Under the pieces are notes generated by a model. It had not been told where the DNA came from and ran no database searches. It worked only from the letters and a program-made list of their open reading frames with translations. 37,273 nt of DNA from Stramenopiles sp. TOSAG23-2. Lineage: Eukaryota; Sar. The position numbers and the translations under genes were made by a program. Positions 224-37,273 of the stretch are shown here, piece after piece (position 1 is the stretch's first letter; the number at the start of each line of letters is the position of its first letter). The stretch is from assembly GCA_900128395.1 (NCBI GenBank), contig LT649320.1, forward strand, positions 1-37,273, written 5' to 3'.

Positions 224-2272
224 ATGGCAACTTTATATGCCAGACAATTGCTTGGGTTGGATGGTAAAGAGAGTGGGGATAATGATTCTAATATGCCAAC
301 GCAAAGCAGATTTCGTAGTGTTTCTAAATCAACACGTCATCGACCAAATTTATTTAATCCAAGTTATGAATACGATGAAGATGCAGCTACTACATATTAT
401 CCTAAATCCTTAGGAACGAAGCGCCTTTTGGAACATGCGCTAAGCGAGCATTATTTGTTTTCACAACTTGCAAAACGTGATTTATCGGAAGTTGTTAATG
501 CTATGAAAAAGAAACTAGCACATACAAACGATACAATTATTACTCAAGGAACAGAAGGTGATCTTTTTTACATATTGGAGGAAGGTGCTTGTGAAGCATA
601 TGTAAATGGAAAATCTGTGAAAAAATATGCTAGTGGTGAAAGTTTTGGTGAACTTGCACTTTTACATAGCTGTCCACGTGCTGCATCCGTTGTTGCTACA
701 TCCCATGGGACTTTATGGACATTAAATCGCGCTACATTTAAACGGACTTTACAAAATTCCAAAGTAAAAGAAAACATTAAACGTTGTGAATTTTTAAAAA
801 AAGTGCCAAATTTTAAGACATTGACAAATCAAGAAATTGGTAGCATTGCTGGTGTGATTGAAATGGAAATGTATGACAAAGGCAATAATATTGTTCGTGA
901 AGGTGAAAGGGGTGATAAATTTTACATTATACAAGATGGCGAATGCAATGCATTGAAAAAAGCAGATGGGGAAATTGTTACAATTGGTACTTTGCAAGCA
1001 GGTGATTTTTTTGGTGAAACTGCAATTATTACCCATGAACCACGAAATGCAACTGTGCAAGTTACGTCGGATACAGCAATTGTTTTATCATTATCAAAAT
1101 ATGATTTTGAAACGGTCCTTGGGCCATTGAAACACTTAATGGACGATGTACGGCGGAAACGCAGGAATGATACGGCAAGCGCATTGAAAAGGCATAGCCA
1201 ATCTTCTGGCAGGGGAAGTGATACAGAAGGTAAAAAAGGAGGTAAAAGTGAACCAGCAACTGCAGATTTATCTATTTTATGGGAAGATTTGAAATTTTAT
1301 GTTACGCTAGGAACTGGTACATTTGGTAGGGTCAAATTAGTAGAACACGTGCCTACAAATCGCGCGATGGCATTGAAAGCGATGCAAAAAGCACAAGTAG
1401 TAAGGGCACACCAAGCAAAAAATGTTTGTAGCGAGAAAGATTCAATGTTAATGTGCAACCACCCTTTTGTTATTAAATTGTATCGTACATTCCAAGATAA
1501 AAATTCAATTTACATGTTATTGGAGTTGGTGCAAGGCGGTGAATTATGGAGTTTACTATATCAAAGCAAAGCATTACCACGGACTCGTATTGGTATTGGT
1601 GGCTTTGAATCTAATGCATGTAAATTTTATGCGGCTTGTGTAGTCAGCGCGTTTGAACACATCCATGGATTTGGTATCGCATATCGTGATTTAAAACCTG
1701 AAAATTTATTATTAGCAGCAAATGGCTATTTAAAAGTCGTTGATTTTGGTTTTGCTAAGAAATTGCCATATCGTAAAAAGGGCAAATTGTTGCATCAAAC
1801 GTTTACTTTATGCGGAACGCCAGAATATTTGTCACCGGAATTAGTGAAACAAACAGGTCATAATCGTGGTGTAGATTGGTGGGCATGTGGTATATTGATA
1901 CATGAATTGTTACATGGGGAAACCCCATTTTGCGATGATAATCAACATCAAATGTTTAAAATGATTATGCAATCAAAAAAATATTTAAAAATCGATGAAC
2001 GTGTTGAAGGAAGCGGTAATGATATTATAAATAAATTGCTTGAGAAAGATTCGGCAAGGCGATTTGGTACTGTCCGTGGTGGCGTAGAAGATGTGAAAAA
2101 CCATCCATGGTTTAGTACAATCAATTGGGATAAATTGGTCAATCAGGATATAGCAGCACCTTTTGTGCCAAGTTTGAAAAATGCATTAGATACATCAATG
2201 TTTGACCCATATGAAGAGAGTGATCATGTACAATCATATCATGGGGATAATAGTGCTTTTGAAACATTTTAA
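224..2272 (+). CDS. Cyclic-nucleotide-dependent AGC protein kinase (PKG-like, two CNB domains)
   Basis: 682 aa. The order is N-terminal linker, two tandem cyclic-nucleotide-binding domains (about 75-190 and 195-310), then an AGC kinase domain (about 355-620) and C-terminal tail. This is the single-chain layout of cGMP-dependent kinases, as opposed to the separate R and C subunits of PKA. Phosphate-binding cassettes are visible around FGELAL (141-146) with R152, and FFGETAI (262-268) with R274. Kinase landmarks are the Gly loop GTGTFG (363-368), Lys in MALK (K385), YRDLKPEN (catalytic D489), DFG (D507) and GTPEYLSPE. The first residue after each cassette Arg is Ala153 and Asn275, not the Thr associated with cGMP selectivity in animal PKG, so the ligand may not be cGMP. 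An RFRSVS stretch near residue 30 could be an autoinhibitory or autophosphorylation site. The start is fixed by an in-frame TAA just upstream (218-220). Confidence 0.93.
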   Translation: MATLYARQLLGLDGKESGDNDSNMPTQSRFRSVSKSTRHRPNLFNPSYEYDEDAATTYYPKSLGTKRLLEHALSEHYLFSQLAKRDLSEVVNAMKKKLAHTNDTIITQGTEGDLFYILEEGACEAYVNGKSVKKYASGESFGELALLHSCPRAASVVATSHGTLWTLNRATFKRTLQNSKVKENIKRCEFLKKVPNFKTLTNQEIGSIAGVIEMEMYDKGNNIVREGERGDKFYIIQDGECNALKKADGEIVTIGTLQAGDFFGETAIITHEPRNATVQVTSDTAIVLSLSKYDFETVLGPLKHLMDDVRRKRRNDTASALKRHSQSSGRGSDTEGKKGGKSEPATADLSILWEDLKFYVTLGTGTFGRVKLVEHVPTNRAMALKAMQKAQVVRAHQAKNVCSEKDSMLMCNHPFVIKLYRTFQDKNSIYMLLELVQGGELWSLLYQSKALPRTRIGIGGFESNACKFYAACVVSAFEHIHGFGIAYRDLKPENLLLAANGYLKVVDFGFAKKLPYRKKGKLLHQTFTLCGTPEYLSPELVKQTGHNRGVDWWACGILIHELLHGETPFCDDNQHQMFKMIMQSKKYLKIDERVEGSGNDIINKLLEKDSARRFGTVRGGVEDVKNHPWFSTINWDKLVNQDIAAPFVPSLKNALDTSMFDPYEESDHVQSYHGDNSAFETF

Positions 2273-2514
2273 ATGCGTTTACATTTTAAAAAATGTACGG
2301 AATTAAGATTTTATTTTGTAGTTTGTTTTTAACTGTGTTTTTTTTTGATTTCTGTGGATAGAGGCTAGAGGCCGTTGATTTGGTACACTCCTTTTTATCA
2401 TATTTTTACTCTTCACAAATAGATCTCACGAATATATTTATTTAAATATATGTGTTTTTCTCTTACTCATATGTTAATAAATATATACGACGTATAATTA
2501 TATATATGCACATA

Positions 2515-3645
2515 TTAATGCTTCCATTCACCTGTATCATCACAAAATAATGGCCTAGCAGTTGGATAACATTCAGGTGTTTCACAGGTGAAATGCAATT
2601 GTCTACATGCTTTGCCTTTTTTACCCCATGGTGCATGTTCATCCGTGAAGCATCGTGCGGATGAACCAAAATTTGTATGCAAACCATTTTTTCGCTCATT
2701 TACTGTAGGTGTTATATAACATGTTTGTTTATTTACTTCTTTATTTTCTTGTCTCCAATCTTTTGAACAACCGGTCCTTTCTCCGGTATATTCATCAATG
2801 GTACATTTAGGACAATTATCTTGTATATCCGTACATGCAGAAGGACATGGTTTGATCCCTACGCCATTATTACTTTCATCGCATTTATAAAATAATTGAT
2901 AACACCATGCTTGTGTCAATGCATCCATGCAATCGTTTGATTGCCCTGAACCAATTAATGGGGTTTGTTCTAAATGGCGCCATTCCACACTTAAGGTTTG
3001 ATAATTTACATATTTGCCACATATATGCAAGTCGCCATAGTTTGGTTGTTTACAAGCATTCATTCCAGTAACTGGATGCAATGAATATTTAATCGATTTA
3101 ACGCTCGTAGTACTACTATTATTATTATTATTATTCCCTTCATCAGGTTTAAAATTTACACGTACATACCACCATCCTTCTTGAACTAAATGTGGTGCAT
3201 TGACACCAACAGCAAAATAACCACCATTAATTTCATCTTTTCCACCAGATTTATATAATTTTTCTTTACTTTCTTCAAAGATTGTAGAATGTTTTGTATA
3301 TGCAGTTGATACATCAGAAATACCAATATTATTAGTAGCATCACATCCATGTCTTAAATATAATGATAATGCATCTGCATTTTCATCATGGTCAGTAAAT
3401 AATGATACTTTTAATGCAGCTGGTTTGGATAAATATATTTTATAATATGCACTTTTTCCCATGTTAGTTAATAAATTAACTTCATCGTAATTTTGATCTG
3501 GTTGGATTTCTTTAGCTGATATACATTTATCATATTCCGTCATCGTAGATGTTGTTGATGAAGAAGTTACTATATCAAACATATGGGACATACATAGTAT
3601 TATTATTATTTTAATAAAAAATAATAATTGAATCTGGTTATACAT
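2515..3645 (-). CDS. Secreted protein with PPC-like and frizzled-like Cys-rich domains
   Basis: 376 aa. The N terminus has a hydrophobic run (LLFFIKIIIILCMSH) that reads as a signal peptide. Residues about 40-190 look like a beta-sandwich of the PPC/bacterial pre-peptidase C-terminal kind (ADALSLYLRHGC, then GWWYVRVNF); this assignment is weak. Residues about 195-290 carry a Cys pattern close to a frizzled CRD: CGKY..Y.TL, then CMDALTQAWCYQLFYKC, KPCPSAC and NCPKC. A further Cys-rich tail follows, with several disulphide-type Cys and no transmembrane helix, so the protein is probably secreted or luminal. Frizzled-type CRDs are best known from animal Wnt receptors but occur in other eukaryotes. 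No seven-TM region follows, so it is not a receptor of that class. It is convergent with the kinase gene and divergent from ATP synthase d. Confidence 0.75.
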   Translation of the reverse strand: MYNQIQLLFFIKIIIILCMSHMFDIVTSSSTTSTMTEYDKCISAKEIQPDQNYDEVNLLTNMGKSAYYKIYLSKPAALKVSLFTDHDENADALSLYLRHGCDATNNIGISDVSTAYTKHSTIFEESKEKLYKSGGKDEINGGYFAVGVNAPHLVQEGWWYVRVNFKPDEGNNNNNNSSTTSVKSIKYSLHPVTGMNACKQPNYGDLHICGKYVNYQTLSVEWRHLEQTPLIGSGQSNDCMDALTQAWCYQLFYKCDESNNGVGIKPCPSACTDIQDNCPKCTIDEYTGERTGCSKDWRQENKEVNKQTCYITPTVNERKNGLHTNFGSSARCFTDEHAPWGKKGKACRQLHFTCETPECYPTARPLFCDDTGEWKH

Positions 3646-4442: not shown

Positions 4443-5083
4443 ATGTTGAGAACATCTGTTTTGAAGGTAAGGCAAGTACGTAAACGTGCTGTTGATTGGT
4501 TAGCATTATCAGGAAAAGTGAGTACTGATGGTGCAAGGACTGACGTCAACCGTTTACGTGATTTATATGATGAAATCAATGCTGCTGCTAAAATGTATGA
4601 AGGTGAAGTAGCTGCAATTGATTTTGCAGGATACCGTAAAGATATCAGTGCACCTGGTATTGTTGATGAGTTTGAAGTACGTAATACACATATATCTATC
4701 GAACACTATTATCTATACACAAAGATAAAACGTTTCCTTCCTATATCTTATATAATATATTTAAAAACATATTTTACTAACAGAATACTTATGTATATAA
4801 ACAGGCCGCATACAATTCCATAGTTTACCCAGAAATCAAATTAAGTGAAAGTACAGTTGCTGATATGAATGCTAAAATGGATCAAATCTTAGCAGATGCA
4901 TCAACAATGCGTGAAGAATCCGTTTCTCGTTTAGCAGAATTGGAAAGTATGATTGCTGAAGCCGAAGCAAACAAAACAACACGTGACACAACTATTGATG
5001 AAGTATTAGCAAGATATCCACATATTGCTGAAGAGATTGATGATGAAATTGAAAATCATCAATGGTGGAAAGATGTTAATTAA
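4443..5083 (+). CDS. ATP5PD: Mitochondrial ATP synthase subunit d (two exons)
   Basis: Exons 4443-4676 and 4805-5083 join in phase 0 to give 170 aa, close to the family's usual ~160. The subunit belongs to the peripheral stalk of mitochondrial F1Fo ATP synthase. Family signatures visible are the N-terminal VDWLALSGKV block, the AIDFAGYRKDI.APGIVDEFE block ending exon 1, and a long charged helical region in exon 2 (residues about 95-150) with the C-terminal ARYPHIAEEI motif. The intron is 128 nt (GTACGT...ACAG) with TACTAAC at 4775-4781. The exon-2 frame is open from 4805, so splicing restores AAYNSIVYPEIKL before the internal ATG at 4865. The first residues (MLRTSVLKVRQVRKRA) are basic and amphipathic, consistent with mitochondrial import. 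This may be the family's own N terminus and not a cleaved presequence. Confidence 0.88.
4677..4804 (+). other. Spliceosomal intron in ATP synthase d
   Basis: This 128-nt phase-0 intron has donor GTACGT at 4677, acceptor ACAG ending at 4804 and a perfect TACTAAC branch motif at 4775-4781. The branch A is 24 nt from the acceptor. Retaining it would abolish the conserved junction between VDEFE and AAYNS. Confidence 0.85.
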
Positions 5084-5847
5084 ACTTGTTTTTGTTCATA
5101 TATATAATTATAAAAAAGAAATATATATATATGCATTGTATATATGTAATTTATGATGTAGTTGGATGTATCATTAGAACAGGAGATTTGGAATTTAACA
5201 TACATTTTTTTTCTCGTTTTAGTTTTTTTATAATTCCGACGAGACACATTTTAATTCGTGACACATACACACATACAATGTGTGTTATCACATTTTAAAA
5301 TTGTTTCTTGATAGTTGTTTTGAAAATGAAAAGAGGGAAAAAATGGTGTAATAATCTAGTCGATATAATAATAATCTATTTTAAATCAAGAAATGAAGAG
5401 ATTTTGATATGAAGAGAGAAGAGAGAGAGAGAAATTGTTGTGTCGTCGTACATTTAAAATTAAAAAATTATATATGCTGTGTTTGTATTTTTTGATGTCG
5501 AATTTTTTATGATTCGAGAATATTGTACAGTGTTTGACGACTAGGGCTTAATGCATGTGCGTGCGTTTACATCTCCCCCCTTGTTAAGTATTTTGAAAAA
5601 ATATATTAGTGTTTTTATAGAAACAATATCTTTTAATATATATTACATACTCCTCACATTTTGCAAGTCACACGCACACATGTTTTCTCATATCTCTCTT
5701 TCAACTCTCACGTTTGTGGTATATAAATATATTAGATTTACATTCTGGTGTTTCAAATATTTTTTCAAATCAAAAATTATTACAAATTTATATCAGTATC
5801 AATGCAGTATGTTTACACACACATATATATATAAAAGCGTAATACCT
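5084..5847. other. Convergent intergenic region, AT-rich
   Basis: 764 bp between two facing 3' ends. It contains TA microsatellites (5098-5132, 5825-5835), a purine GA tract at about 5408-5432 and several T-rich stretches. No convincing ORF, RNA gene or strong inverted repeat was seen. Parts are probably 3' UTRs. Confidence 0.5.
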
Positions 5848-6612
5848 TTATGCCTCTTTCATTTCGACATCATCCGTTGACACTGTCGCATCGCCAAATG
5901 CAGTATTTAAATAATTTTTCAATTCATCGACACTTAACATTTTAACATCTTGATCTTTACCAACTATTGCAATGCCAACACTTTCAGCTGTTAAATCTTT
6001 ATCACCAGCTGCACCTTCTAAAGATTTCAAAGCATGTATTACTAATTCATCAACAGATAAGTCTGGGAATGTTTCAAATACTTTTTCCAAATATGTCCTA
6101 GCACTTTGTGATCTGGAGCCAATGGCTTGCGCTTTATGTTCGTAATAATGTGCGGTTGGGCTTGTTTCATATATATGTGGTCCAGTCTTATCATATCCAG
6201 CAACCAATAAACCAACACCAAATGGACGACCACGTTCATATGTCATATCTTGTGTACATCTTTGATGCATATCAGAAATGTGGGAAACTAAACGTCCAAC
6301 TTGTAAACTTGCACCGTATACGAACCTATGGTTTAAGCATTCCATTCGCATATGATCGCTCAAATATCGCGCATCTGCGGTTAAACCAGAGATTGAAATG
6401 ACTAAATGTGAATCCATTTTAAATAACTTTTCTTGGTATGATGCTAATTCGTCTGGTGACCTTTTCAATACCCCTAAAACTGCATGTGTTTTGCTTTTAA
6501 TTCCAACACAACATGAACCTTGTTTCACTGCTTCAGCAGCATATTCAACTTGAAACAATCGTCCTTGCGGGGAAAATGTGGTTGGATCTGTATCGTATTG
6601 ATTTCTAAACAT
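5848..6612 (-). CDS. PSMA1: 20S proteasome subunit alpha type 1 (alpha6)
   Basis: 254 aa, the usual length. This is an outer-ring, non-catalytic alpha subunit of the 20S core proteasome. The N terminus MFRNQYD.D followed by FSPQGRLFQVEYAAEAVKQG is the proteasome alpha signature in its alpha-type-1 form. Further matches are GIKSKTHAVL, ISISGLTADARYLSDHMR, ERGRPFGVGLLVAGYD..GPHIYET and IGSRSQSARTYLE. A short acidic tail (STDDVEMKEA) closes the protein. The reading frame is uninterrupted. It is convergent with ATP synthase d and divergent from the abundant secreted protein across the minisatellite region. Confidence 0.97.
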   Translation of the reverse strand: MFRNQYDTDPTTFSPQGRLFQVEYAAEAVKQGSCCVGIKSKTHAVLGVLKRSPDELASYQEKLFKMDSHLVISISGLTADARYLSDHMRMECLNHRFVYGASLQVGRLVSHISDMHQRCTQDMTYERGRPFGVGLLVAGYDKTGPHIYETSPTAHYYEHKAQAIGSRSQSARTYLEKVFETFPDLSVDELVIHALKSLEGAAGDKDLTAESVGIAIVGKDQDVKMLSVDELKNYLNTAFGDATVSTDDVEMKEA

Positions 6613-7741: not shown

Positions 7742-9142
7742 ATGTTACGTTCCGCTATTGTATTATTATGTATGGTAGCATTAGTTAATGCCGGTAGTTT
7801 AAGAGCACCGGATGCAGCACCAGCAAATGCTCCAGAATCTGAAGTATTAAACAAAGCATCTGAAGTTGCAAACTCTGCAGCAAGAGTACCATTGCCACAA
7901 GGAGGTCCACATGGTATGAACAGAGGAAGCGGTTATGTACCAAAATGGTCACATGACGTATTAAATAATAATGTTAAAGCAATTAAAGACAACTGGGCAA
8001 ACCAAGAAGGTAAACTTGGATATTACAATGGACATTTTGGTTACAACCCAAGTGTACACCCAGATTTACAAGGAAACGTTGTTAACCCAGCACAATTTGG
8101 TTTGAGTGGCATTCCAGCTGCAACACCAGGTTACATGCAACCTATGTTCAAAGCATCTGCATACAAAGGTAACCAACCATCAGTTGGTATGCCACCAGTG
8201 GTTCCAGGTATGCCATATCTTGGACAACCAAGTGAAAAGTTAGATGCTATGAGGCAAATCAACGAGGCAACTGCTGCTGCAAAGCAAGGTGTTGCTGCAG
8301 TGCAAAACATGGTACCAGTTACATTGGCAAATGGTATTCGAATGAACGTTCCACAAGGTGAAGCAAATGCATTAGGTATTCCAGGTATGCCAGTGCAACC
8401 AAACGGCAAACTAGCTGTTGATGCAAATAAATTGTTAGGTTCACCTATCACTTTACCAGGTACACCAGAACATTACAAAGATGTTACCACCCGTATCTTG
8501 AACGAGCAAGCTTCTGTAGGAGCACAAATCGCAAATGTACAAGCAGTTGAGACCCAGCACGCACAAAGAGCTGCATATTTAGGCGCTATGATGCATCAAT
8601 TGCAACAACAATATTTACAAGCACAACATTTGGATCACTTACAAAAAACATACATGGAAAAAATGGCACGTCGTAATGCTGCACTTGGTATTGACCGTCA
8701 TCGTGTACAAAACGAATATTCATTAGGTGGTTTATTGAACCAATACAACTCTGTAAAAGCATACGAGCAACATGTACGTAGTGTAGTTTCTCAAATCGAT
8801 GTCGTTAAACAAAACTTGATGAAAGAAATCATGACCTTCAGACAAAGTATTCGTAAAGATACCAATGCCATCAAAGAATTATTAGATGGTAAAATGCCAT
8901 CTGCATCAGCAAGTGGCCCAGAAGGTAAATTGGAAAAAGAAGAACAAGCAGCATTATCCTTAGGCGAAAAAGCAGCTGATCAGCAAAAGAAAGCAGATAC
9001 AGACGCAGTTAAAGCAAATGATGAATTCATCAACCATGTTGAATCCGCATTGAACAAAGGACCAGGTGGTGATTCTAGTGGTTCTAGTGGTGCTGCTGCT
9101 CCAGCAGCATCTGGAGCAGAGGGACGTGCACCTAAATTGTAA
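7742..9142 (+). CDS. Secreted Ala/Gln/Pro-rich protein of unknown function, probably highly expressed
   Basis: 466 aa. A clear signal peptide (MLRSAIVLLCMVALVNAG) with likely cleavage near residue 18 is followed by a mature chain in which I see no Cys. Residues about 20-110 are Gly/Asn/Tyr-rich. Residues about 120-235 carry repeated PGMP motifs (VPGMPYLGQP, IPGMPVQPNG). Residues about 240-370 are Gln/Ala/His-rich and helical (MMHQLQQQYLQAQHLDHLQ). The C terminus is charged and then Ser/Gly/Ala-rich. Codon choice looks more restricted than in neighbours, often C-ending in Asn, Tyr, His and Thr codons, suggesting strong expression. I recognise no family. A structural, cell-surface or extracellular-matrix role is only inference. 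Its upstream region contains the minisatellite. Confidence 0.85.
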   Translation: MLRSAIVLLCMVALVNAGSLRAPDAAPANAPESEVLNKASEVANSAARVPLPQGGPHGMNRGSGYVPKWSHDVLNNNVKAIKDNWANQEGKLGYYNGHFGYNPSVHPDLQGNVVNPAQFGLSGIPAATPGYMQPMFKASAYKGNQPSVGMPPVVPGMPYLGQPSEKLDAMRQINEATAAAKQGVAAVQNMVPVTLANGIRMNVPQGEANALGIPGMPVQPNGKLAVDANKLLGSPITLPGTPEHYKDVTTRILNEQASVGAQIANVQAVETQHAQRAAYLGAMMHQLQQQYLQAQHLDHLQKTYMEKMARRNAALGIDRHRVQNEYSLGGLLNQYNSVKAYEQHVRSVVSQIDVVKQNLMKEIMTFRQSIRKDTNAIKELLDGKMPSASASGPEGKLEKEEQAALSLGEKAADQQKKADTDAVKANDEFINHVESALNKGPGGDSSGSSGAAAPAASGAEGRAPKL

Positions 9143-9573
9143 TGGTTGAAGATATAAAAATATAAAAATAGGCGGGGAGTGACGGACAGAATATGATATA
9201 CTTTTAGAGATGGTTTTGCAGGCAATTATGTATAGTATATTTTATTTAAATATCATTATAATCAATACGTGAGACTCAAACTTAAAAATATTAAATGTAA
9301 CTTTTAATACACGTATTTTATTTTTTATTTTATTAATTATATATATTAATATATTTACGAGTATGTAATAAAAATGTATGATACGAAGTAATGTTTTGTA
9401 TTTTTCTACTTTTAAAAAAATGATATCATAATAATGACAATTCCTATCATACTTCAAAATCTAAAAATATTGAAAAAAATATATACCAAACGCAAAAATA
9501 ATAAAATAAAAGAATATCTTATTATCTGCGTGTAAATAATAATATTATACGCGACGTGTACGTATATTTTTCT
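9143..9573. other. Convergent intergenic region
   Basis: 431 bp of AT-rich sequence between facing 3' ends. It contains the perfect 10-bp palindrome ATGATATCAT at 9420-9429 and an ACG-rich stretch near 9550-9566. No ORF or RNA gene is supported. Confidence 0.5.
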
Positions 9574-10425
9574 CTATTTCAACCATCCTTGTTTCTTTGC
9601 TTGTTCAAACATATCAATAATATGAATTTTCTCATCTTCAACAATCTCTGGATGCCATATATCAAATAATAATAAAATTCGTTCTGTTGTTCCATTATGG
9701 TATACGTAATGTTCATAACTATCATCAAATATCATCAATTCACCTTCTTTCCATTCTTTTGCCTCACCGCCAACAACAATCCCACAATTATCTGGTACAA
9801 CTAACGGCAAATGGCATCGTAAACGTAAATTGGTGGGTCCATAATGTGCATCAATATCTGAATAAGGCATTAACGAACTGAAAAAACTATATGCAAATGG
9901 AATTTGTGTTTGTAAAAGATCAATGGAATTTAAAAATTTTGTTGTAGATGGGCAATGCTTTTCGAAAATAGGCTGTTTCTCCCCTTTTAATATGTATGAA
10001 TGCCATTCCCATTTACCACCATGCAACGTATGTTCTGTCTCATTTATTTCATAATCGGACTTGCATTCTTTACGCATGTTCAAACATTCCTCTCGGATCT
10101 TAGATACAACCTCGGGAGTAATTAAATTTGTAATATCTTTTTTCAAATTGAATTCATTACCTGAATAAAAAGGCTTTGACGTCAAACCAGGTAACGTGAA
10201 AACACTTGGATTCGGCCTTGCAATTGGTGGGTCTTTAAATTTTAATATTCTGGATGGATATATATTACATTGCAAAGGATCTTCGTTGGCATTATTATTA
10301 CTATTATTATTTTGATTCGTTAGTCTCGTCGTGGTATAACATTTATTATTATTATTATTAGATTGAAAATGTAATCTAATTTCTTTTGTTTGATTTTTTA
10401 ATTGTAACAAAAATCGTTTCATCAT
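9574..10425 (-). CDS. Aspartyl/asparaginyl beta-hydroxylase-like dioxygenase
   Basis: 283 aa. The second half (about 120-265) matches the Asp/Asn beta-hydroxylase fold of 2-oxoglutarate/Fe(II) dioxygenases. DAHYGPTNLRLRCHLPL contains the first iron-type His (H194), GELMIFDDSYEHYVYHN the second (H239), and ERILLLFDIWHPE the distal Arg region. The single-Asp/Glu ligand of many other dioxygenases is not apparent, as is usual in this subfamily. The first 60 residues are basic, Asn-rich and contain CYTTTR, which could be an organelle transit peptide. There is no transmembrane anchor or TPR region as in animal ASPH, so it is a short soluble form. The substrate is unknown. Confidence 0.85.
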   Translation of the reverse strand: MMKRFLLQLKNQTKEIRLHFQSNNNNNKCYTTTRLTNQNNNSNNNANEDPLQCNIYPSRILKFKDPPIARPNPSVFTLPGLTSKPFYSGNEFNLKKDITNLITPEVVSKIREECLNMRKECKSDYEINETEHTLHGGKWEWHSYILKGEKQPIFEKHCPSTTKFLNSIDLLQTQIPFAYSFFSSLMPYSDIDAHYGPTNLRLRCHLPLVVPDNCGIVVGGEAKEWKEGELMIFDDSYEHYVYHNGTTERILLLFDIWHPEIVEDEKIHIIDMFEQAKKQGWLK

Positions 10426-12426: not shown

Positions 12427-12580
12427 AAAACCAGTGTAAGGACAGGTTATTATAGTGTATTTTATGTGTTTATAAGATTAAACCATGGCATGATAATCAC
12501 GGAGAAGGATATTTAAAATAATATTATAACACTTAGATTTTGTAAAAATAATAAAATAAATAAATTACTATTTACCTCCA

Positions 12581-12610: not shown

Positions 12611-12654
12611 CACACTCTGTGGATTTCAATGAACTCTATCGCAATGTTACGATT

Positions 12655-26639: not shown

Positions 26640-28925
26640 TTATTTATTCTTCCCCCATACATTTTTACTTCCACCCGGATTATTATTACCATTGCCTGAC
26701 ATGGCTCTTCGACTTTTTTTACTTTGATTATTTGTCTTTGCAGCTTCTCCTAAAGTTGGAAAGAAACCCATGGTTTTAGTTATATTTGCAAAACTTTTAT
26801 CTTTTTTCTTCCCAATGTTATTATATGCAGCAGGAAGAGCAGGTTCTTTTAAAACTATTTTAGGTGGTGAACCGACAGAAGGAAAATTCTTTGGTGCCAA
26901 AGATTCTTTACGTTCTTTTTCTATTTTAGCGCTTATCATTTCAGGCGATGGGCAATCACGACTTTTATTGTGTGATTTATTTCCATTTTTATGTTTTTCT
27001 TTCATTTTTTTATCACGATCTCTTTTTCGCTTTTGAAGCTCCTTTTTAAACTTATTCTTTGTCGCTTGTGAAAGAAGATCATTTAAATCAATTTCTATTA
27101 ATTTAATTTCTGCATTGAGATTTAAATGGGATAAATACTTGTAAAATTTCGCCTTATCTTTTGTTAAAGTAACAGTTTCGATATCCAACACGTCACTTGA
27201 CTTTAATTCAGATGGAAAATTATCATATGTTTTAAATTCTTCTTTTAACAGATTGACACAAAACGGATGCAAAAATGTTTTGCTACCATCTTCAAGTTGG
27301 TAAAAGTAGAAACCTGTTTCAGTAGAACCAATTTTATTTAATGCAATTGGCTGTTGTTGTAAATTCGTTGGTGCCACAAGTTTTGGTGGCGAAATAGTTG
27401 TAGTTTTCTCCACCAAATTACTTTCAACAGTTGATTTCTGTAACTTGTCTTTTTTACTATTCGGGCTGGTTCCTCCTCCTCCTCCTAAAGATGGATACTC
27501 TTCCTCATCAAGTATAATTTTATTGTTTTTCGCAGATTTTTCTTCTTTCTTCTTCTTTTCAGATTCAATAATAGTTTCAATTAATTCATGTAATTCCCAC
27601 TTCAATGCCTTCTCAGCAATCATTTGACGTCCAAGACTATCTAATTGCGTTATTGACTCGTTTTCCTTTTGACTATCTTCGTATTTACCAATAATAGCAA
27701 GAAAATTCGCATCTTGTTTTGCCTCTGTAACTACTTTATTTAAATCTTCAATTTCTTTACATAAAATAGATTTTATATATTCTTTTGTGCATCTTAAAAA
27801 TTGTGTAAATTTTAAAAGTTGTTCTTTCTCGTTAAAATAATTATTATTGCCATTTTTTATTATTTTTACAGTAGGCATTTTTTTTTGCATTACATTATTC
27901 CATTCTTCATTTGTGATTGTTGATAAATATGCAAAGGTTGATCGAGTTGATATTTTATTGCGAAACATTAACTTAAAAGTAGCTAAAGCCGTATTACTTT
28001 TATCATTATCTTTTGCTATTGGATTGATATTGCTATTATTATTGTTATTATTGTCATCAATATCATCATTGTCATTACTATTTTCATTCTTCTTCTCGCT
28101 ACTAGTAGTTTTATTATTCTTTTTCTGATGTTGTTTGATACTAATTGTTGGTTTTATAGAAGTAATATAGCGATTTGCTGTTGGTCTTAATTTTTCTTTT
28201 GTAATTGGGTCATTACATATTGCGCATTTCACCCAATTTTTTCGATTCGAATTTTCCAAAAGTCTTAACACACATAACATGCAATATACATGACCACAAC
28301 AATTCATTAATGGCACTTCGGGTTTGCATAAACATATTGGGCAAGAAAAATCGTTATTATCTTCCAGATCAAATAAAACTTGTTCTACATCGTTCCAGTC
28401 AACTTTTTTATTATTATGAATCAACATATATGGATTATTCGTTTCAGATGCAGATGGGCCAGATACAACAAAACGATAAGTTGCTTTTAAAAATGCATTG
28501 CGATCAAATACAGGATGGTGAACTTTATGTTGCGACCGTTTCCCTATTACAGTGGATGGAAAGTAATTAAGACTATCATCCACTTCACGTTCATATTTAA
28601 AGCCTAGGAATGCACTATTTATTTGTTGTTGTGATTTTTTATTATTTTTTTTACTATTATTACCTTTATATATTTTTGCTGTCGTTATATTTTGTTGTTG
28701 CTGCTTTTTATAATGATTGCGTCGTGTTGGATATTTTTTTGTATTATTGTTATTGTAAGCACTTTTGTTTTTCTTGTTATTTTTTTTCTTGTTACTGTAT
28801 TTTTTATTAGTATTGTTATTGTTATTATTATTCTTTGAATTCCCTGATGAAGAATTGTTATTGTTATTATTATTATTATTATTACTTGGTATCCATTCTT
28901 TTGCATTAACTGATAATGCTGACAT
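26640..28925 (-). CDS. RNF10: RNF10-like RING E3 ubiquitin ligase
   Basis: 761 aa, similar to the ~800 aa family norm. An Asn/Lys-rich low-complexity N terminus (10-110) leads to the RNF10 pre-RING block (GFKYEREVDDSLNYF, FDRNAFLKATYRFVVSG, KVDWNDVEQVLFD). A C3HC4 RING follows at about 195-240 (CPIC from C195, CGHVYCMLC, CAIC). The C-terminal half has the second family signature, GFYFYQLEDGSKTFLHPFCV, then YLSHLNLNAEIKLIEIDL and a basic RKRDRDKKMKEKH stretch, ending with a FPSVG motif and Asn/Gly-rich tail. RNF10 in animals ubiquitinates 40S ribosomal proteins on stalled initiating ribosomes. All zinc ligands are present, so the protein should be active. The start is the only ATG before the low-complexity run. 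Confidence 0.9.
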   Translation of the reverse strand: MSALSVNAKEWIPSNNNNNNNNNNSSSGNSKNNNNNNNTNKKYSNKKKNNKKNKSAYNNNNTKKYPTRRNHYKKQQQQNITTAKIYKGNNSKKNNKKSQQQINSAFLGFKYEREVDDSLNYFPSTVIGKRSQHKVHHPVFDRNAFLKATYRFVVSGPSASETNNPYMLIHNNKKVDWNDVEQVLFDLEDNNDFSCPICLCKPEVPLMNCCGHVYCMLCVLRLLENSNRKNWVKCAICNDPITKEKLRPTANRYITSIKPTISIKQHQKKNNKTTSSEKKNENSNDNDDIDDNNNNNNSNINPIAKDNDKSNTALATFKLMFRNKISTRSTFAYLSTITNEEWNNVMQKKMPTVKIIKNGNNNYFNEKEQLLKFTQFLRCTKEYIKSILCKEIEDLNKVVTEAKQDANFLAIIGKYEDSQKENESITQLDSLGRQMIAEKALKWELHELIETIIESEKKKKEEKSAKNNKIILDEEEYPSLGGGGGTSPNSKKDKLQKSTVESNLVEKTTTISPPKLVAPTNLQQQPIALNKIGSTETGFYFYQLEDGSKTFLHPFCVNLLKEEFKTYDNFPSELKSSDVLDIETVTLTKDKAKFYKYLSHLNLNAEIKLIEIDLNDLLSQATKNKFKKELQKRKRDRDKKMKEKHKNGNKSHNKSRDCPSPEMISAKIEKERKESLAPKNFPSVGSPPKIVLKEPALPAAYNNIGKKKDKSFANITKTMGFFPTLGEAAKTNNQSKKSRRAMSGNGNNNPGGSKNVWGKNK

Positions 28926-31318: not shown

Positions 31319-31521
31319 AATAAATAAAATAATGTCAAACATAATATCAAAATCTTTTTATCATATTCTCTAATATGCATATACTCTGATGTGTGTGAAT
31401 GGAACGCTGACTCCATATATATTACACATATATAGGTGTATCAACTTAATTCCATTTTATCAAATGATATGATAGTATTGTGCATATTGTGTGCATTAAA
31501 TTTATGATTGGGGTAGTATAT

Positions 31522-33138
31522 TTAATTTAAACTTTGTTTACTAGCATTTAATGTTTCAGCTAATTTCATTTGATAACTACGAATACTTTGTGTTAATGAC
31601 AGATTACCATTTGTTGCTGCTAAAATATCATCATCATTTAAGTTATCGTTGTCCTTTAATGATGGTGCGACAATATTTGTAAATTTAGATAATGAGCCAT
31701 GGGCTTTAGCTGGACCCATATCTGGCATTTTTGGTAAAACAGAACGACGATGCGCAGCTTTATTTTGCCGTTTCCTATCAGAAATCAAAGCAGAATATTG
31801 ATGTACCAAATTTTTCCCTCTTGATTCTAAAATACCTAAAAACAACATGTAATTATCGCTTTTAACTTCCGTGGTTGGATCGCTAACTGTAATAGCTTCC
31901 GGGTTTGATTGTAAAAATTCTATTTGACTGGCATCTTTTCCCGTTATGAATTTATCACAACCAATTTTAAAGAAAGTGGTATGTAATGGCTCAAACAAAG
32001 TCTCTAAATTTTGCAACGCTTCTTCATGCATGTGTTTTCCATTTAAATAGGACTGTTCAGATTTTATATTTTCTTTCTGGCTTTGAGATAAAACTTCTGC
32101 CCTTTCAGCATTACGAGATTCGTTTGCCTCCATAATTGATTTAAATTCATTATTTAACATTTGTACAGTCTTTAATGCTTCCTCATATTCTAGCGTAACC
32201 TCATTTACTTTATTGATCAAATTGAATTCATCCTTTGACATTGTATCAAACGAAGTGGTTACAGCTTGGTATATTTCTTTTCCATTTCCATTAAATTCTA
32301 AACCGACGGCACCACTTAATGCAGCGAATTGCTCTTCTACATGTTCCAATTCTTTCAATTTCCGTTCATATGCCATATCGCTTAAACTTGCCAATGATGA
32401 AGATGAATTTTTTCTACCTTTATTCACTGGCGATAATGCTTTTCCGTGCATCCTTGTTGTGCTAGATCTGCGATGAAGCTTTTGACGCTGCAATTTTTGT
32501 ATTGCAATATCTGTGCGATCGATGATAACGGTCAAATCTTCATAATCTTTTAAAAATTGATGTTTGTCTTGGTCATACATTTTCTTTAAGTCTTGCATAC
32601 GGAGTTGTGCAGCATCTCTATCCGCATATAAATTTTCAATTTCATAGTTCAGCTGCTTTAATTCATGCGCTGTATCTGCAAGGTCATCGATCATGCGTTG
32701 AGAGACACGTTCAAATACGATTTTCTCCCTGCGTGCTAAGTCGATCTCACGTTTAATTTCATTGTTAAAACCAACTGCCTTGTCATTTTTACTTAAGACG
32801 AATTGTTTTCGTTTAGTTAATAGTTCACATTCTTGGCGTATACGCCTTTGACTCACAGCCGGTGCATCAGATGCACCAAGTGGCCGTTCACTAAGTTGCC
32901 TAATATCATCTCCGCGAGTGACCCAAGTAGCATAACTGCCCATTTTTTTTCTTGTACCCCAAAGCTCGTCTTTAATCACATTGACTTGAGGTTCCAAAGC
33001 ATCTATTTGTGTTTGAATTTGTACGATGTCATTCTCTATATCCACTTTTTCTAACTCTAGACCATGTGCTTCACGTACAGCTTTTTGTTGCCATATGGTT
33101 AAAGGCTTTACGTCTGAAACATCGTCTTCATCAGCCAT
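31522..33138 (-). CDS. Outer dynein arm docking-complex-like coiled-coil protein (ODA1/CCDC63/CCDC114 family)
   Basis: 538 aa, close to the ~62 kDa algal docking-complex subunit. Three long coiled-coil blocks (about 20-75, 95-225, 250-385) are separated by a basic Ser/Arg hinge (HRRSSTTRMHGKA, about 220-245). The conserved C-terminal block of the family (about 390-460) is recognisable as LETLFEPLHTTFFKIGCDKF then NYMLFLGILESRGKNLVHQY, where animal proteins have a similar 'LGIIEQR' element. Such proteins dock outer dynein arms on axonemal doublets. A low-complexity tail follows. Coiled-coil similarity alone can mislead, so the assignment rests mainly on the last block. It supports a motile, dynein-bearing cilium. 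Confidence 0.7.
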   Translation of the reverse strand: MADEDDVSDVKPLTIWQQKAVREAHGLELEKVDIENDIVQIQTQIDALEPQVNVIKDELWGTRKKMGSYATWVTRGDDIRQLSERPLGASDAPAVSQRRIRQECELLTKRKQFVLSKNDKAVGFNNEIKREIDLARREKIVFERVSQRMIDDLADTAHELKQLNYEIENLYADRDAAQLRMQDLKKMYDQDKHQFLKDYEDLTVIIDRTDIAIQKLQRQKLHRRSSTTRMHGKALSPVNKGRKNSSSSLASLSDMAYERKLKELEHVEEQFAALSGAVGLEFNGNGKEIYQAVTTSFDTMSKDEFNLINKVNEVTLEYEEALKTVQMLNNEFKSIMEANESRNAERAEVLSQSQKENIKSEQSYLNGKHMHEEALQNLETLFEPLHTTFFKIGCDKFITGKDASQIEFLQSNPEAITVSDPTTEVKSDNYMLFLGILESRGKNLVHQYSALISDRKRQNKAAHRRSVLPKMPDMGPAKAHGSLSKFTNIVAPSLKDNDNLNDDDILAATNGNLSLTQSIRSYQMKLAETLNASKQSLN

Positions 33139-34019: not shown

Positions 34020-35120
34020 ATGAGTAACTTGGAAAAAAATAAAGTGACGTCGGCGTTGGTAAGTATTTTCTGTCGACAATATTACCCCTTAATATAGATC
34101 CAATGCTAACAATACTGATTTGAATCAAAATACTAGCCATTATTATCAAGTTTAGCGTATGCTTGTTGCTCTATAGGTATGATATTGTTTAACAAAGCCC
34201 TGGTATCAACATTTCAATATACGCATTTTACGACGTTAATTATGATACAAAATACAATAGGATTAACTTGCTTATTATTACTACGAAATTACATAGATTT
34301 TATAAAGTTTCCTATAAATTTAGATTTGAACTTGGTAAAAGTGTGGATTCCTGCTAATTTATTCTTTGTGTTCATGCTGTATACGGGTTCAGGGAGTTTG
34401 CATGGATTGCCTGTTCAACTTGTTACCGTATTCAAAAACACAACAAATGTTATTATCGCATTTGGCGATTATTTTCTTTTCAATAACGAAACTTCATCTA
34501 TGGGTATCTTTAGTTTTGTATTAACCCTTCTAGCTACGTTATATACTGCGAAAGAAGATTTTGAACATCATCAACGAATCCAAGGTTACATTTACATGAC
34601 TTTGAATTGCTTAACAACCGCAGGTTATGTTTTGTATTTAAGATACGCCATTAAGAAAACTAAATTTACACGTTTTGGTGCGGCATATTATAACAATGTG
34701 CTATCGATTCCAATACTTTTCATATTTTCATGTGTCAATAATGGTAACCCAATTAAGCCCTTTTTGCATGATGCATTTTCAAATTTTTCATTTTGCTTCA
34801 TGCTTCTTTGCACTGGCGCATTAGGTGTTACACTTTCTATATCAGCAATGTGGTGTATTGAATCAACATCTGCAACGACATATTGTGTTGTAGGAGCGGC
34901 AAATAAAGTTGTATTAGCTATACTTGGTGTTGTATTTTTCCACAGCAAGATTACGCAAAAAACTTGGATATTTATAGTTGTAGGTATACTTGCAGGTTTA
35001 TTGTATGGCTTGTCTAAATTACCATCTGCTAAAACAGATGATGATAAAAAAAAAAATGATGATAAAAACAATACGAGGAGTACAATTCCATTGAAAAATA
35101 TTAAAAGTAGTGCTGTATGA
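34020..35120 (+). CDS. Nucleotide-sugar transporter, GDP-mannose type (two exons)
   Basis: Exons 34020-34058 and 34137-35120 join in phase 0 to give 340 aa, the usual length. Splicing restores the first transmembrane helix (LLSSLAYACCSIGMILFNKA), a family hallmark that is lost if the internal ATG at 34179 is used. About ten helices follow. The protein has an FYxNN-like motif (YYNNVLSIPIL) and a GALNK-like motif (GAANKVVLA); both are the sites that define Golgi GDP-mannose transporters such as Vrg4 and GONST1. The second motif differs by one residue (Ala for Leu). The C-terminal tail is Lys/Asp-rich and cytosolic. The role is import of nucleotide sugar, probably GDP-mannose, into the Golgi lumen for glycosylation. 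It is divergent from the docking-complex-like gene. Confidence 0.85.
34059..34136 (+). other. Spliceosomal intron in the nucleotide-sugar transporter
   Basis: This 78-nt phase-0 intron has donor GTAAGT and acceptor CTAG ending at 34136. A TGCTAAC branch-like motif lies at 34104-34110, with branch A 27 nt from the acceptor. It contains an in-frame TAG, so it must be removed for translation from 34020. Confidence 0.85.
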
Positions 35121-35223
35121 GAGAGAAAAATATACGAGTGTGTAATGTGTGGGCTAATGCAAAAGATTTCAAAATATTTTTAAAAAGTACGAATATGATA
35201 CCTGTAAAAATAATTGACATAGA

Positions 35224-35240
35224 TATGATATAATATCATA
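35224..35240. terminator. TATGATAT/ATATCATA hairpin (possible 3'-end element)
   Basis: A perfect 8-bp stem with a single-A spacer, identical in stem sequence to 26464-26484. It lies 103 bp beyond the transporter stop codon. The role is inferred from position only. Confidence 0.4.
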
Positions 35241-35362
35241 CAAAAGCTCGTACGATTTTTCGTTCTAGTAATTTCTTAATTCCGTCACTTATATCTCCCA
35301 TGTATCATATTATCAAATATTAATATACTCGTAATATTTAGTATAATTAACGCTATATAACT

Positions 35363-35411
35363 TATTCTTTAATTTACTCATGATAATTCCTTACTCTCCA
35401 GAAAAAATACG
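35363..35411 (-). repeat. Dispersed repeat, copy C (core only)
   Basis: The minus strand reads GTATTTTTTCTGGAGAGTAA then GGAATTATCATGAGTAAATT. This matches the copy A core at about 12788-12835 except for a few substitutions and one inserted base. Sequence outside the core is not obviously shared. Confidence 0.7.
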
Positions 35412-35574
35412 AAGTACGAACCTCGTACAAAATATATTACATCATTTATAAAATTAATTTAATAATTTAAATATTAAAAAAACAAATATACAGAGGTGCG
35501 TGTATGTGAAATTAAATTCATAAAACACGACTAAAGTCATGTGTACAGATATTATAATACGAGAGAGTAATATA

Positions 35575-35597
35575 TACGAGTATATATACGACTCGTA
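35575..35597. repeat. TACGAGT/ACTCGTA inverted repeat
   Basis: Perfect 7-bp stem with a 9-nt loop, in the convergent spacer 79 bp from the facing gene's stop. Confidence 0.65.
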
Positions 35598-35675
35598 TTA
35601 TATATAATTTTTTTCTAAATATTTTTTTTCAAAAATAAAATAACATACCCACACCAAAAACATAAAACATGTGTG

Positions 35676-37273
35676 TTACTGTCCATCACCGAACCAACAC
35701 AATCGTACAATTATTTGATTATTGCCATCTTGAATTGTGCTAATATTATTTGGACAACCAAGGTATTCCCCTGATTCTTGATTAACACTAATTACTGGAA
35801 TATGAATTTCTTTTTCTAGGGGATCGCCAACATTCATCTTTGCACGCACCGGTAAGTCTGCTTTTCCATCTTTTTTTTGACAACAAAATATTAACATCTT
35901 AGCTCCAGCTTGGCAAGCCTCATATGCAATTGTGCCGAAACTAGTTGATTCTGGAAACCCAGCTGCCGGCCTGCTTACCAAAAGTGCTTTCCCCATGCTC
36001 GTTGATGAGTCAATTTTTGGTACGCCGTTTATATCAGTTACACATATAACTGGCAAATGCATTGATGAATAATTAGACTGCTTTCCAAACTTTGCTCGTT
36101 TACAATCCATCATGTTGCAACTTTGTTCTACGTTTAATTTCTCATCAATAATCCTGCCCTCAATTTTTAAACGAGGTCTTTGTACAACGGCAATGGAAAA
36201 CATTGGCGCACTTCCTATCTTCAAAACATATTGACCAGCTAAGTCTGGATATGGATATGCAGGGTTATGGTCAGTTGCGCCTGGTATTCTACCCCATGAA
36301 AATACTTGCCCACTACTAGTCAACGCAGTTGTATGCATTTTACCACACACCACGTCTTTGATATACAATTGTACATTTTCTAAATATTTATTGTTTTCCT
36401 TACTATTTGTACTTCCAATAAGGAAATCATCCCTCAAAACCACTTCAACTGGTTCAGCGATAAACGCACGGGAGGAAGATAAACTGAAAAATATTTTTGA
36501 TAAATTTTCATCAACATCCACATTGTTACTGTTTTCATCGATGCCATTATTTAAACTATTGGACGTTACCTGGCCATACTGATTACGACCCCACATAAAC
36601 AATTTTCCATCATCAAACAATGCAGCAAAATGTCTTCCTCCATTAGCAACTTTAATGCACTTTGCCTTTACCCTTTTTGCACTTTCTGGAAATTTTACCC
36701 GCTTGAAAATTGACTTTGATGCTCCATCATCACTGAACGTAATTTGCGTTGTTCCATCATCATTCCCGCTTGAATAAATTCTACCATCGTTAGTCAAAGC
36801 CAGTATGGATCGTTCGCCACATGCTACTTGTTTCATGTTGTTTATTAATTTATTGTACGAGCTTCTTTCTACAGTATCGTCCCCATCATTGCTTATGTTG
36901 TTGTCAGTATTGTTTGCTGACAATATTGTATACATACTTCCTCTACGTTTCAAGGCAGAAACAGGTTCGGCAATACCATCGCGTACACCACGGTGATTCA
37001 TCACACTATCCTCGTCTTTCTTTTTAAAAGCTAATTCTTGTTTCATTTTGGCACTAAGCTCAACATCATGTACTTCGCCCTCTGCATCATTTTTCCATAA
37101 GTAGACACCCAATTTTCCTTTGTCCTTCGAACTTTTTGATTCATGTGCAATTGCCATATTTCCCTGTCCTTGACAACAAAATAAATCTTTGTCTAACACA
37201 TTTAACAATGGGATAGGATGAAAATATTGGCTACCACCAAAATTATATAACTTATATCTTGTTTTCCGATTTG
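35676..37273 (-). CDS. RCC1-repeat protein with C-terminal PA-like domain (5' end beyond window)
   Basis: The frame stays open from the stop at 35676 to the right edge, at least 530 codons. No ATG lies at the apparent start near 37208, which is a TTG, so the N terminus is outside. Visible residues begin ...KLYNFGGSQYFHPIP. RCC1-type beta-propeller blades are recognisable in VACGERSILALTNDGRIYSS, VANGGRHFAALFDDGKLFMW with GRNQYGQV, and VVCGKMHTTALTSSGQVFSW, separated by Asn/Asp/Ser-rich insertions. The last ~150 residues resemble a protease-associated (PA) domain: a KALLVSRPAAGFPES stretch, then TIAYEACQAGAKMLIFCCQK and IPVISVNQESGEYL. RCC1 plus PA is not a combination I recognise. A binding or scaffold role, possibly luminal, is inferred. 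Confidence 0.8.
   Translation of the reverse strand, partial: NRKTRYKLYNFGGSQYFHPIPLLNVLDKDLFCCQGQGNMAIAHESKSSKDKGKLGVYLWKNDAEGEVHDVELSAKMKQELAFKKKDEDSVMNHRGVRDGIAEPVSALKRRGSMYTILSANNTDNNISNDGDDTVERSSYNKLINNMKQVACGERSILALTNDGRIYSSGNDDGTTQITFSDDGASKSIFKRVKFPESAKRVKAKCIKVANGGRHFAALFDDGKLFMWGRNQYGQVTSNSLNNGIDENSNNVDVDENLSKIFFSLSSSRAFIAEPVEVVLRDDFLIGSTNSKENNKYLENVQLYIKDVVCGKMHTTALTSSGQVFSWGRIPGATDHNPAYPYPDLAGQYVLKIGSAPMFSIAVVQRPRLKIEGRIIDEKLNVEQSCNMMDCKRAKFGKQSNYSSMHLPVICVTDINGVPKIDSSTSMGKALLVSRPAAGFPESTSFGTIAYEACQAGAKMLIFCCQKKDGKADLPVRAKMNVGDPLEKEIHIPVISVNQESGEYLGCPNNISTIQDGNNQIIVRLCWFGDGQ

What the first reader, a model, noticed from the sequence alone, without database searches (positions are those of the whole stretch)
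224..37273. Twenty consecutive genes alternate strand without exception
The order is + - + - ... for all twenty protein genes from the kinase (224) to the RCC1-like gene (37273), giving 10 convergent and 9 divergent junctions and no tandem pair. With random orientation the chance of 19 alternating junctions is (1/2)^19, about 2 in a million. The genes are functionally unrelated, so this is a genome-layout rule and not an operon. It implies bidirectional promoters shared by every divergent pair and shared 3' regions for every convergent pair. It is the opposite of the long one-way gene blocks known in kinetoplastids and dinoflagellates, and I do not recall strict alternation as a described general mode. 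The one possible exception is the doubtful plus-strand ORF tail at 2-157.
Basis: partly seen in the sequence, partly recalled or inferred. Interest (0 to 1): 0.88.

Follow-up and report, generated by a model that had tools for sequence, protein, structure and literature searches.

The report
Genes that mostly alternate DNA strands
In the parts read of this gene-dense, probably single-celled eukaryote, neighbouring genes lie on opposite DNA strands about three times in four instead of half the time, and the gaps where two genes end facing each other are rich in short DNA words that are scarce in the other gaps.

Summary
The pattern is real. My gene caller finds 19 genes in the window, 17 of 18 junctions alternating; the missed twentieth (21956-22261, +) has relatives, giving 19 of 19. 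It is not a strict genome rule: in 200 kb from four other contigs 55 of 72 junctions alternate, against 0.547 +/- 0.064 after random flips; other settings give 70-79% against 45-49%. Orientation memory decays like a nearest-neighbour chain, so several runs this long are expected genome-wide. A milder bias is published for Ectocarpus (61.7%). What looks new is a word signature of convergent spacers (TACGA/TCGTA, TATGATA/TATCATA, CGTACG): 31 of 36 convergent, 4 of 36 divergent and 0 of 17 tandem spacers reach 6 words per kb. In a genome-wide word search, 12 of 14 distinct held-out intergenic places are convergent. Best reading: promoter-type and terminator-type spacers alternate, and tandem pairs are selected against. 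No RNA data exist here; the mechanism is inferred.

The parts
224..2272 (+). gene 1: kinase with two cyclic-nucleotide-binding domains
   Evidence: Pfam Pkinase and cNMP_binding, 2 stretches; called
2273..2514 (.). convergent spacer, 8.3 signature words/kb
2515..3645 (-). gene 2, unknown
   Evidence: ORF to 3645; called to 3591; no Pfam hit
4443..5083 (+). gene 3: mitochondrial ATP synthase d subunit, one intron 4677-4804
   Evidence: Pfam Mt_ATP-synt_D on the first exon; two exons called
5084..5847 (.). convergent spacer with low signature (1.3/kb), an exception
5848..6612 (-). gene 4: 20S proteasome alpha subunit
   Evidence: Pfam; homologues
7742..9142 (+). gene 5, unknown
   Evidence: called; no Pfam hit
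9143..9573 (.). convergent spacer, 13.9/kb
9574..10425 (-). gene 6: aspartyl/asparaginyl beta-hydroxylase-like
   Evidence: Pfam Asp_Arg_Hydrox; called to 10422
10804..12426 (+). gene 7: MFS transporter-like
   Evidence: Pfam MFS_1
12427..12946 (.). convergent spacer, 1.9/kb, an exception; holds a 95-base N run at 12655-12749
12947..13996 (-). gene 8, unknown
   Evidence: ORF; caller instead uses 12947-13916 plus a small upstream exon at 14371-14426
14849..15727 (+). gene 9: ankyrin-repeat protein
   Evidence: Pfam
15728..15970 (.). convergent spacer, 16.5/kb
15971..17905 (-). gene 10: coiled coil with IQ motif
   Evidence: Pfam IQ
19039..19518 (+). gene 11, unknown
   Evidence: called; coding score 67.6 against 4.0 for the antisense ORF
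19519..20686 (.). convergent spacer, 7.7/kb
20687..21427 (-). gene 12: PDZ protein
   Evidence: Pfam
21956..22261 (+). gene 13, unknown; 3' end missing
   Evidence: 4 database hits, three covering 65-70% at 87-97% identity; placed by tblastn; not called by my caller
22217..22678 (-). gene 14, unknown; 3' end possibly cut at the join with gene 13
   Evidence: called; score 50.9
24167..26161 (+). gene 15, unknown
   Evidence: called; no Pfam hit
26162..26639 (.). convergent spacer, 18.8/kb
26640..28925 (-). gene 16: RING-finger-like
   Evidence: Pfam below cut-off, 21.3 against 25.2 bits
29291..31318 (+). gene 17: MORN-repeat protein
   Evidence: Pfam; called
31319..31521 (.). convergent spacer, 9.9/kb
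31522..33138 (-). gene 18: ODAD1-like ciliary coiled coil
   Evidence: Pfam ODAD1_CC; homologues
34179..35120 (+). gene 19: EamA-like transporter
   Evidence: ORF, Pfam; called from 34374
35121..35675 (.). convergent spacer, 30.6/kb
35676..37273 (-). gene 20: RCC1-repeat protein, open at the contig end
   Evidence: Pfam RCC1_2; called

Best explanation
The window is a long but statistically expected stretch of a genome with a strong nearest-neighbour bias toward opposite orientation. Inferred mechanism: the compact, intron-poor genome (about 74% coding, one gene per 2.5 kb in the 237 kb read) uses two specialised kinds of spacer, a promoter-type between gene starts and a terminator-type between gene ends. 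The terminator-type spacers carry clusters of short words (TACGA/TCGTA, TATGATA/TATCATA, CGTACG), often in facing pairs, that I propose stop or separate two polymerases meeting tail to tail. Tandem spacers are poor in these words and would be prone to read-through into the next promoter, so tandem arrangements are selected against and alternation is what remains. Shown: the alternation bias, its nearest-neighbour form and the enrichment of the words in convergent spacers. Inferred: that the words act in termination or insulation, and that selection against tandem pairs is the cause.
For: 55 of 72 junctions outside the window alternate, binomial p 4e-6. Random-flip controls with the same caller: 0.547 +/- 0.064, maximum 0.677 of 60; with three other settings observed 0.70, 0.73 and 0.79 against 0.45-0.49 +/- 0.05, 25 flips each. 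Kinase loci 9 of 11. Lag correlations without the window -0.55, 0.28, -0.08, 0.12 against -0.55, 0.30, -0.17, 0.09 predicted by a first-order chain. Signature: TACGA/TCGTA 135 in convergent spacers against 48.8 +/- 7.2 in sequence of matched dinucleotide make-up, 43 against 38.2 +/- 5.4 in divergent; CpG observed/expected 1.66 against 0.83; all words together 14.9 per kb convergent, 2.5 divergent, 2.1 tandem; >= 6 words/kb in 31 of 36 convergent, 4 of 36 divergent, 0 of 17 tandem (Fisher p 1e-10 and 8e-10). Held out: kinase loci, convergent 14.5, 11.0, 5.3, 0, 19.4; divergent 1.5, 4.6, 1.3, 1.8; tandem 1.5, 0. TTCGTACGAG occurs 76 times in the genome against 10 for the word read backwards; of the 20 places fetched, 18 are distinct and held out: 12 convergent, 2 tandem, 4 inside called genes, 0 divergent, p 2e-5 for 12 of 14 intergenic. 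Facing arms of the same type 18 against 10.1 expected, p 0.0045.
Against: No transcript data. The words were picked from the same 237 kb on which the 31/36 count rests; only the kinase loci and the genome-wide word search are held out. Five of 36 convergent spacers lack the signature, two of them in the window, and 4 of 36 divergent spacers have it, one (C3:856-1460) at 14.9/kb. The tandem result depends on small genes: with genes under 100 aa ignored, tandem spacers show an excess (TACGA 28 against 13.9 +/- 3.6) and their 3' halves 6.6 words/kb, between convergent (16.0) and 5' halves (2.5), and the first 150 bp after the stop differ from convergent only at p 0.036; with genes down to 60 aa the tandem 3' halves fall to 2.8/kb. 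So part of the signature may belong to gene ends in general. RNA folding is not special: mean z -0.36 convergent, -0.28 divergent. TACGA shows no strand preference relative to the nearest gene (66 against 69), unlike TATGATA (62 against 29). Tandem spacers also hold an excess of inverted repeats (partial output). Contig C1 shows only 10 of 18. Close pairs of long genes (< 500 bp apart) reach only 15 of 22, p 0.067. Selection against tandem pairs was not tested.
Confidence: 0.48

Rival explanations
1. Alternation is driven from the divergent side: bidirectional open-chromatin promoters make divergent pairs stable, and convergent pairs follow automatically because every second junction must then be tail to tail.
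For: Published for Ectocarpus: close divergent pairs share one nucleosome-depleted region, and 61.7% of genes at TSS-adjacent spacers are in divergent pairs (PMC7784034, passages). With strong divergent pairing, convergent junctions rise equally, as seen here (36 and 36).
Against: Divergent spacers here are not compressed: median 682.5 bp against 447 tandem, p 0.018 in the wrong direction, while in Ectocarpus they are 409 against 2293. The enriched sequence signature sits in convergent, not divergent, spacers.
Confidence: 0.25
2. The convergent-spacer words are the decayed remains of small mobile elements that survive mainly where no promoter is hit, and have no function; alternation then has an unrelated cause.
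For: 15 of 25 shared-repeat pairs between spacers join two convergent spacers; some convergent spacers hold repeated segments, one pair in inverted orientation in C4.
Against: Shared repeats cover 1343 of 16745 convergent-spacer bases, no more than in divergent spacers (3024 of 29384), and masking them leaves the separation almost unchanged (AUC 0.899 against 0.904). Older, unrecognisable copies are not excluded.
Confidence: 0.24
3. Gene-calling artefact: shadow ORFs and missed or fused genes create apparent alternation.
For: The base caller is biased by +0.05, as it recalls on average 65 junctions of 72 planted, probably by fusing some neighbouring genes.
Against: With introns forbidden or shortened, the null falls to 0.45-0.49 while the observed stays at 0.70-0.73. 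Pairs of genes >= 200 aa less than 800 bp apart outside the window: 32 of 43, p 0.001. The word signature sorts spacers by the called orientation on loci not used to choose it.
Confidence: 0.03

Closest known systems
Ectocarpus (brown alga) alternate-strand gene layout
   Same: Adjacent genes lie on opposite strands more often than chance (61.7% of genes at TSS-adjacent spacers are in divergent pairs; PMC7784034, passages).
   Different: Stronger here: 55 of 72 (p 0.006 against 0.617; with introns forbidden the figure is 55 of 79). Divergent spacers are long here and short in Ectocarpus. No convergent-spacer word signature was mentioned in the passages I saw.
Theileria compact genomes with a tail-to-tail motif
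   Same: A motif peaking at transcription termination sites and conserved in tail-to-tail spacers is reported (PMC4761415, passages and part of one section).
   Different: Orientation there is about random (computed from its Table 1: 46%, 48%, 53% and 46% opposite-strand pairs in four species), so the motif exists without alternation. The sequence of that motif was not in the text I saw.
Chromera and Vitrella (chromerid algae)
   Same: Closely spaced genes are head to head more often than chance (PMC4501334, passages).
   Different: No figure given in the passages (data not shown), and only head-to-head pairs are named.
Plasmopara downy mildews (oomycetes)
   Same: Stramenopiles with an excess of tail-to-tail pairs below 500 bp (34% against 25%) and of head-to-head pairs above 5 kb (32%) (PMC6660063, passages).
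   Different: Mild excesses limited to distance classes, not a chain of alternating genes.
One-way gene blocks of dinoflagellates such as Amoebophrya
   Same: A genome-wide orientation rule.
   Different: The opposite rule: 83 to 98.5% of genes in co-oriented blocks in three strains (PMC7789003, passages).

Membership tests
Ectocarpus-type alternate-strand layout | opposite-strand neighbours above random genome-wide | tested here: met
   55 of 72 outside the window, in 200 kb of 17.45 Mb; flip control 0.547 +/- 0.064
Ectocarpus-type alternate-strand layout | divergent spacers shorter than tandem spacers | tested here: not met
   medians 682.5 and 447 bp, p 0.018
Ectocarpus-type alternate-strand layout | one shared nucleosome-depleted region per close divergent pair | not testable with these tools
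   needs nucleosome or TSS maps
Ordinary compact eukaryotic genome (Theileria pattern) | orientation ratio about 1:2:1 | tested here: not met
   36 divergent, 17 tandem, 36 convergent including the window
Ordinary compact eukaryotic genome (Theileria pattern) | spacer length falls from 5'5' to 5'3' to 3'3' | tested here: inconclusive
   682.5, 447, 426.5; tandem and convergent not different, p 0.74
Directional gene clusters (kinetoplastids, dinoflagellates) | long co-oriented blocks | tested here: not met
   longest same-strand run is six calls in C1, two of which look by eye like pieces of one leucine-rich-repeat gene
MAST-4A-like uncultured stramenopile | about 34% GC, few introns per gene | tested here: inconclusive
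   GC 0.32-0.35, 21 called introns in 95 genes, 0.22 per gene, unverified; paper: 33.9% and 0.56 per gene. Compatible, not proof
MAST-4A-like uncultured stramenopile | 18S rRNA | not tested
   thirteen rRNA requests did not complete (first, last)

The most novel reading that the evidence does not exclude
The nuclear genome is punctuated by two alternating classes of spacer. A dedicated word code, built from TACGA/TATGATA-type words in facing pairs, marks tail-to-tail junctions as bidirectional termination or boundary islands. The need for such an island at a gene's 3' end forces its neighbour to face it, so strand alternation is a consequence of how transcription is stopped and not of shared promoters.
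Probability: 0.33. Interest if true: 0.82.

Novelty: new variant of a known kind. Interest (0 to 1): 0.62.

Why it matters
As I recall the field, gene orientation in eukaryotes is usually treated as close to random, with long one-way blocks as the known exception. A genome at about 75% alternation, with a sequence code concentrated in convergent gaps, would make an open question testable: whether termination or promoter sharing shapes gene order in compact genomes. It may also give annotators a cue, since a signature-rich gap between two same-strand genes can point to a missed gene: C3:40792-42281 splits into a convergent gap at 32.6 words/kb and poor gaps once two small genes are counted, and L043 gains an opposite-strand gene under permissive calling. 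The cue is imperfect: at C3:379-1460 most of the words end up in a divergent gap.

Tried and rejected
Rejected: strict alternation as a genome rule (17 of 72 junctions outside the window are tandem). Rejected: chance (flip controls). Rejected: a long-range layout plan; correlation dies off as for a nearest-neighbour chain. Rejected: RNA hairpin terminators as the whole story; folding energies of convergent spacers are not special. Rejected: recognisable shared repeats as the source of the signature. Led nowhere: viral-contig scans for relatives, Rfam and tRNA scans of the window, organism identification by 18S (not completed), identification from the proteasome homologues (120 of 4814 hits listed; named ones include Nannochloropsis, Tribonema, Ochromonadaceae and a brown alga, but also green algae). 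Paper searches that bear on strand alternation or convergent motifs; in the listings and the passages I read I saw no alternation this strong. The original Ectocarpus genome paper was not seen. The words 'orientation' and 'strand' do not occur in the main text of two MAST genome papers (PMC8163842, PMC5778133).

Rows dropped before counts: the junction counts use every called gene; the spacer tables leave out genes under 60 aa or under 100 aa. In these tables the window enters as the caller saw it, with gene 13 missing, so its gene 12/14 junction counts as tandem. For the word test I dropped L029 (from a contig used to choose the words) and L040 (overlaps L039). One search ended at its time limit; only its inverted-repeat lines are used.
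Full report
What the window is. The window is the whole of contig C87 of a 17.45 Mb, 793-contig genome. Its contents are eukaryotic: a kinase with cyclic-nucleotide domains, a proteasome alpha subunit, a mitochondrial ATP synthase subunit with an intron, an ODAD1-like ciliary protein and a MORN protein. The genome is AT-rich (GC 0.32-0.35 in the five stretches read), about 74% coding in the 237 kb examined, with 21 called introns in 95 called genes. These traits are compatible with MAST-4A, an uncultured marine stramenopile with 33.9% GC and 0.56 introns per gene (PMC5269757, passages), but the organism is not identified.

Checking the count. I wrote a seven-state gene caller with optional introns, trained on long ORFs, that takes no account of neighbour orientation. 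It genes in the window, 17 of 18 junctions alternating. The missing one, gene 13 on the plus strand, has four database hits, three of which cover 65-70% of it at 97, 93 and 87% identity, and P0130 places it at 21956-22261. P0130 continues for about 49 residues that find no match in the assembly, and the gene abuts gene 14 exactly where it is cut, so that join may be a deletion or an assembly fault.

Genome-wide rate. Only part of the genome could be read: the first 50 kb of each of contigs C1-C4. Outside the window 55 of 72 junctions alternate (10 of 18, 16 of 19, 16 of 21, 13 of 14 by contig), Wilson interval 65-85%. As control I flipped each gene block at random and re-called: 0.547 +/- 0.064, maximum 0.677 in 60 runs. 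That null exceeds 0.5 probably because the base caller fuses some neighbouring genes; with introns forbidden, introns short, or strict penalties the observed rates are 55 of 79, 55 of 75 and 55 of 70 against nulls of 0.451, 0.486 and 0.492 in 25 runs each. Eight kinase loci give 9 of 11. Pairs of genes of 200 aa or more give 32 of 43 within 800 bp but only 15 of 22 within 500 bp. The bias is therefore real, and it is not strict.

Form of the bias. Orientation correlation by gene distance, window left out, is -0.55, 0.28, -0.08, 0.12, close to a first-order chain. At rates of 0.70, 0.75, 0.775 and 0.80 about 2, 7, 12 and 20 runs of 19 alternating junctions are expected among roughly 7,000 junctions, against 0.007 at 0.5. 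The window is a long run in a biased genome, picked out by a reader looking for patterns.

Promoter sharing. Divergent spacers are the longest class: medians 682.5 (n 36), 447 tandem (n 17), 426.5 convergent (n 36), divergent against tandem p 0.018. This is the reverse of Ectocarpus (409 against 2293), where moreover the expression of divergent partners is uncorrelated, r 0.04. Sharing in some pairs is not excluded, but nothing in the sequence demands it.

A convergent-spacer signature. Comparing 3' and 5' flanks brought up words enriched at gene ends. They concentrate in convergent spacers: TACGA/TCGTA 8.06 per kb convergent, 1.46 divergent, 2.73 tandem, 1.82 coding; TATGATA/TATCATA 5.43, 0.78, 1.46, 0.27; CGTACG 1.02, 0.03, 0.10, 0.06 (genes of 100 aa or more). 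Sequence of matched dinucleotide make-up explains the divergent counts but not the convergent ones (135 against 48.8 +/- 7.2 for TACGA) and not fully the tandem ones (28 against 13.9 +/- 3.6). CpG observed/expected is 1.66 in convergent spacers and 0.83-0.92 elsewhere. With genes of 60 aa or more, 31 of 36 convergent, 4 of 36 divergent and 0 of 17 tandem spacers reach 6 words per kb, and the totals are 14.9, 2.5 and 2.1 per kb.

How far it is confined to convergent gaps. Two tandem spacers looked rich when genes under 100 aa were ignored. Counting the small genes, one (C3:40792-42281) resolves as the reading predicts: 14 words, 32.6 per kb, in a convergent gap of 429 bp, the other gaps poor. 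The other (C3:379-1460) does not: 2 words in a convergent gap of 201 bp and 9 in a divergent gap of 605 bp. Tandem 3' halves hold 6.6 words per kb under the 100-aa rule and 2.8 under the 60-aa rule, against 1.4 for tandem 5' halves. A weaker form of the signature at all gene ends is therefore possible.

Held-out tests. The words were chosen on the same DNA, so I tested elsewhere. At the kinase loci 3 of 5 convergent spacers exceed 6 per kb (14.5, 11.0, 19.4; the others 5.3 and 0), 0 of 4 divergent and 0 of 2 tandem do. Across the whole genome TTCGTACGAG occurs 76 times against 10 for the same word read backwards, and CTTCGTATGATA 60 times against 0. Loci were fetched for 20 of the 76 places; 18 are distinct and held out: 12 convergent, 4 inside called genes, 2 tandem, 0 divergent. 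Convergent spacers make up 30% of intergenic bases, so 12 of 14 intergenic hits has p 2e-5. One of the two tandem cases becomes convergent when the caller is made permissive, the other does not; the four genic cases lie in called exons under the base settings.

What the words might do. Facing pairs of arms outnumber pairs facing away (32 against 14; same-type facing 18 against 10.1 expected, p 0.0045). TATGATA points along the nearest gene (62 against 29), TACGA does not (66 against 69). RNA folding is unremarkable. I therefore prefer a DNA-level or protein-bound boundary or termination element over a hairpin terminator. Decayed mobile elements are a serious rival: convergent spacers share some repeats, but these cover 8% of their length (10% in divergent spacers) and masking them changes the separation little.

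Standing. Biased alternation is known from Ectocarpus in milder form, and a tail-to-tail termination motif is known from Theileria without alternation. I did not see the combination of about 75% alternation with a convergent-gap word code in searches (listings, and passages of the papers named here). I rate it a new variant of a known kind, with the mechanism open.

Noticed in passing
window 22200-22680: Genes 13 and 14 are joined tail to tail with gene 13 cut; the C-terminal residues of its relative P0130 find no match in the assembly. One short relative (P0131) jumps from gene 13 to the start region of gene 14, as if gene 14's body were absent there.
   Followed up: partly
window 6927-7323: A block of near-tandem units built from CTGCTAAACAC and CTTGCTTTTCTCCCC in the divergent spacer between genes 4 and 5.
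   Followed up: no
window 12655-12749: A run of 95 N in a convergent spacer, an assembly gap or a masked stretch.
   Followed up: no
G000 C18 and C644; C163 and C209: Identical kinase hits at identical coordinates on two contigs, which suggests duplicated contigs in the assembly.
   Followed up: no
G000 C1:15355-18875: Leucine-rich-repeat coding split into two adjacent same-strand calls; probably one gene, so one tandem junction may be false (by eye).
   Followed up: no
G000 C4:32297-33050: A segment of about 750 bp whose ends match, in inverted orientation, a repeat core also found in C2; mobile-element-like, inside a convergent spacer.
   Followed up: no
G000 C4:14150-18146: The only tandem junction called in C4 joins two proteins that look alike by eye, perhaps a local tandem duplicate that kept its orientation.
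   Followed up: no
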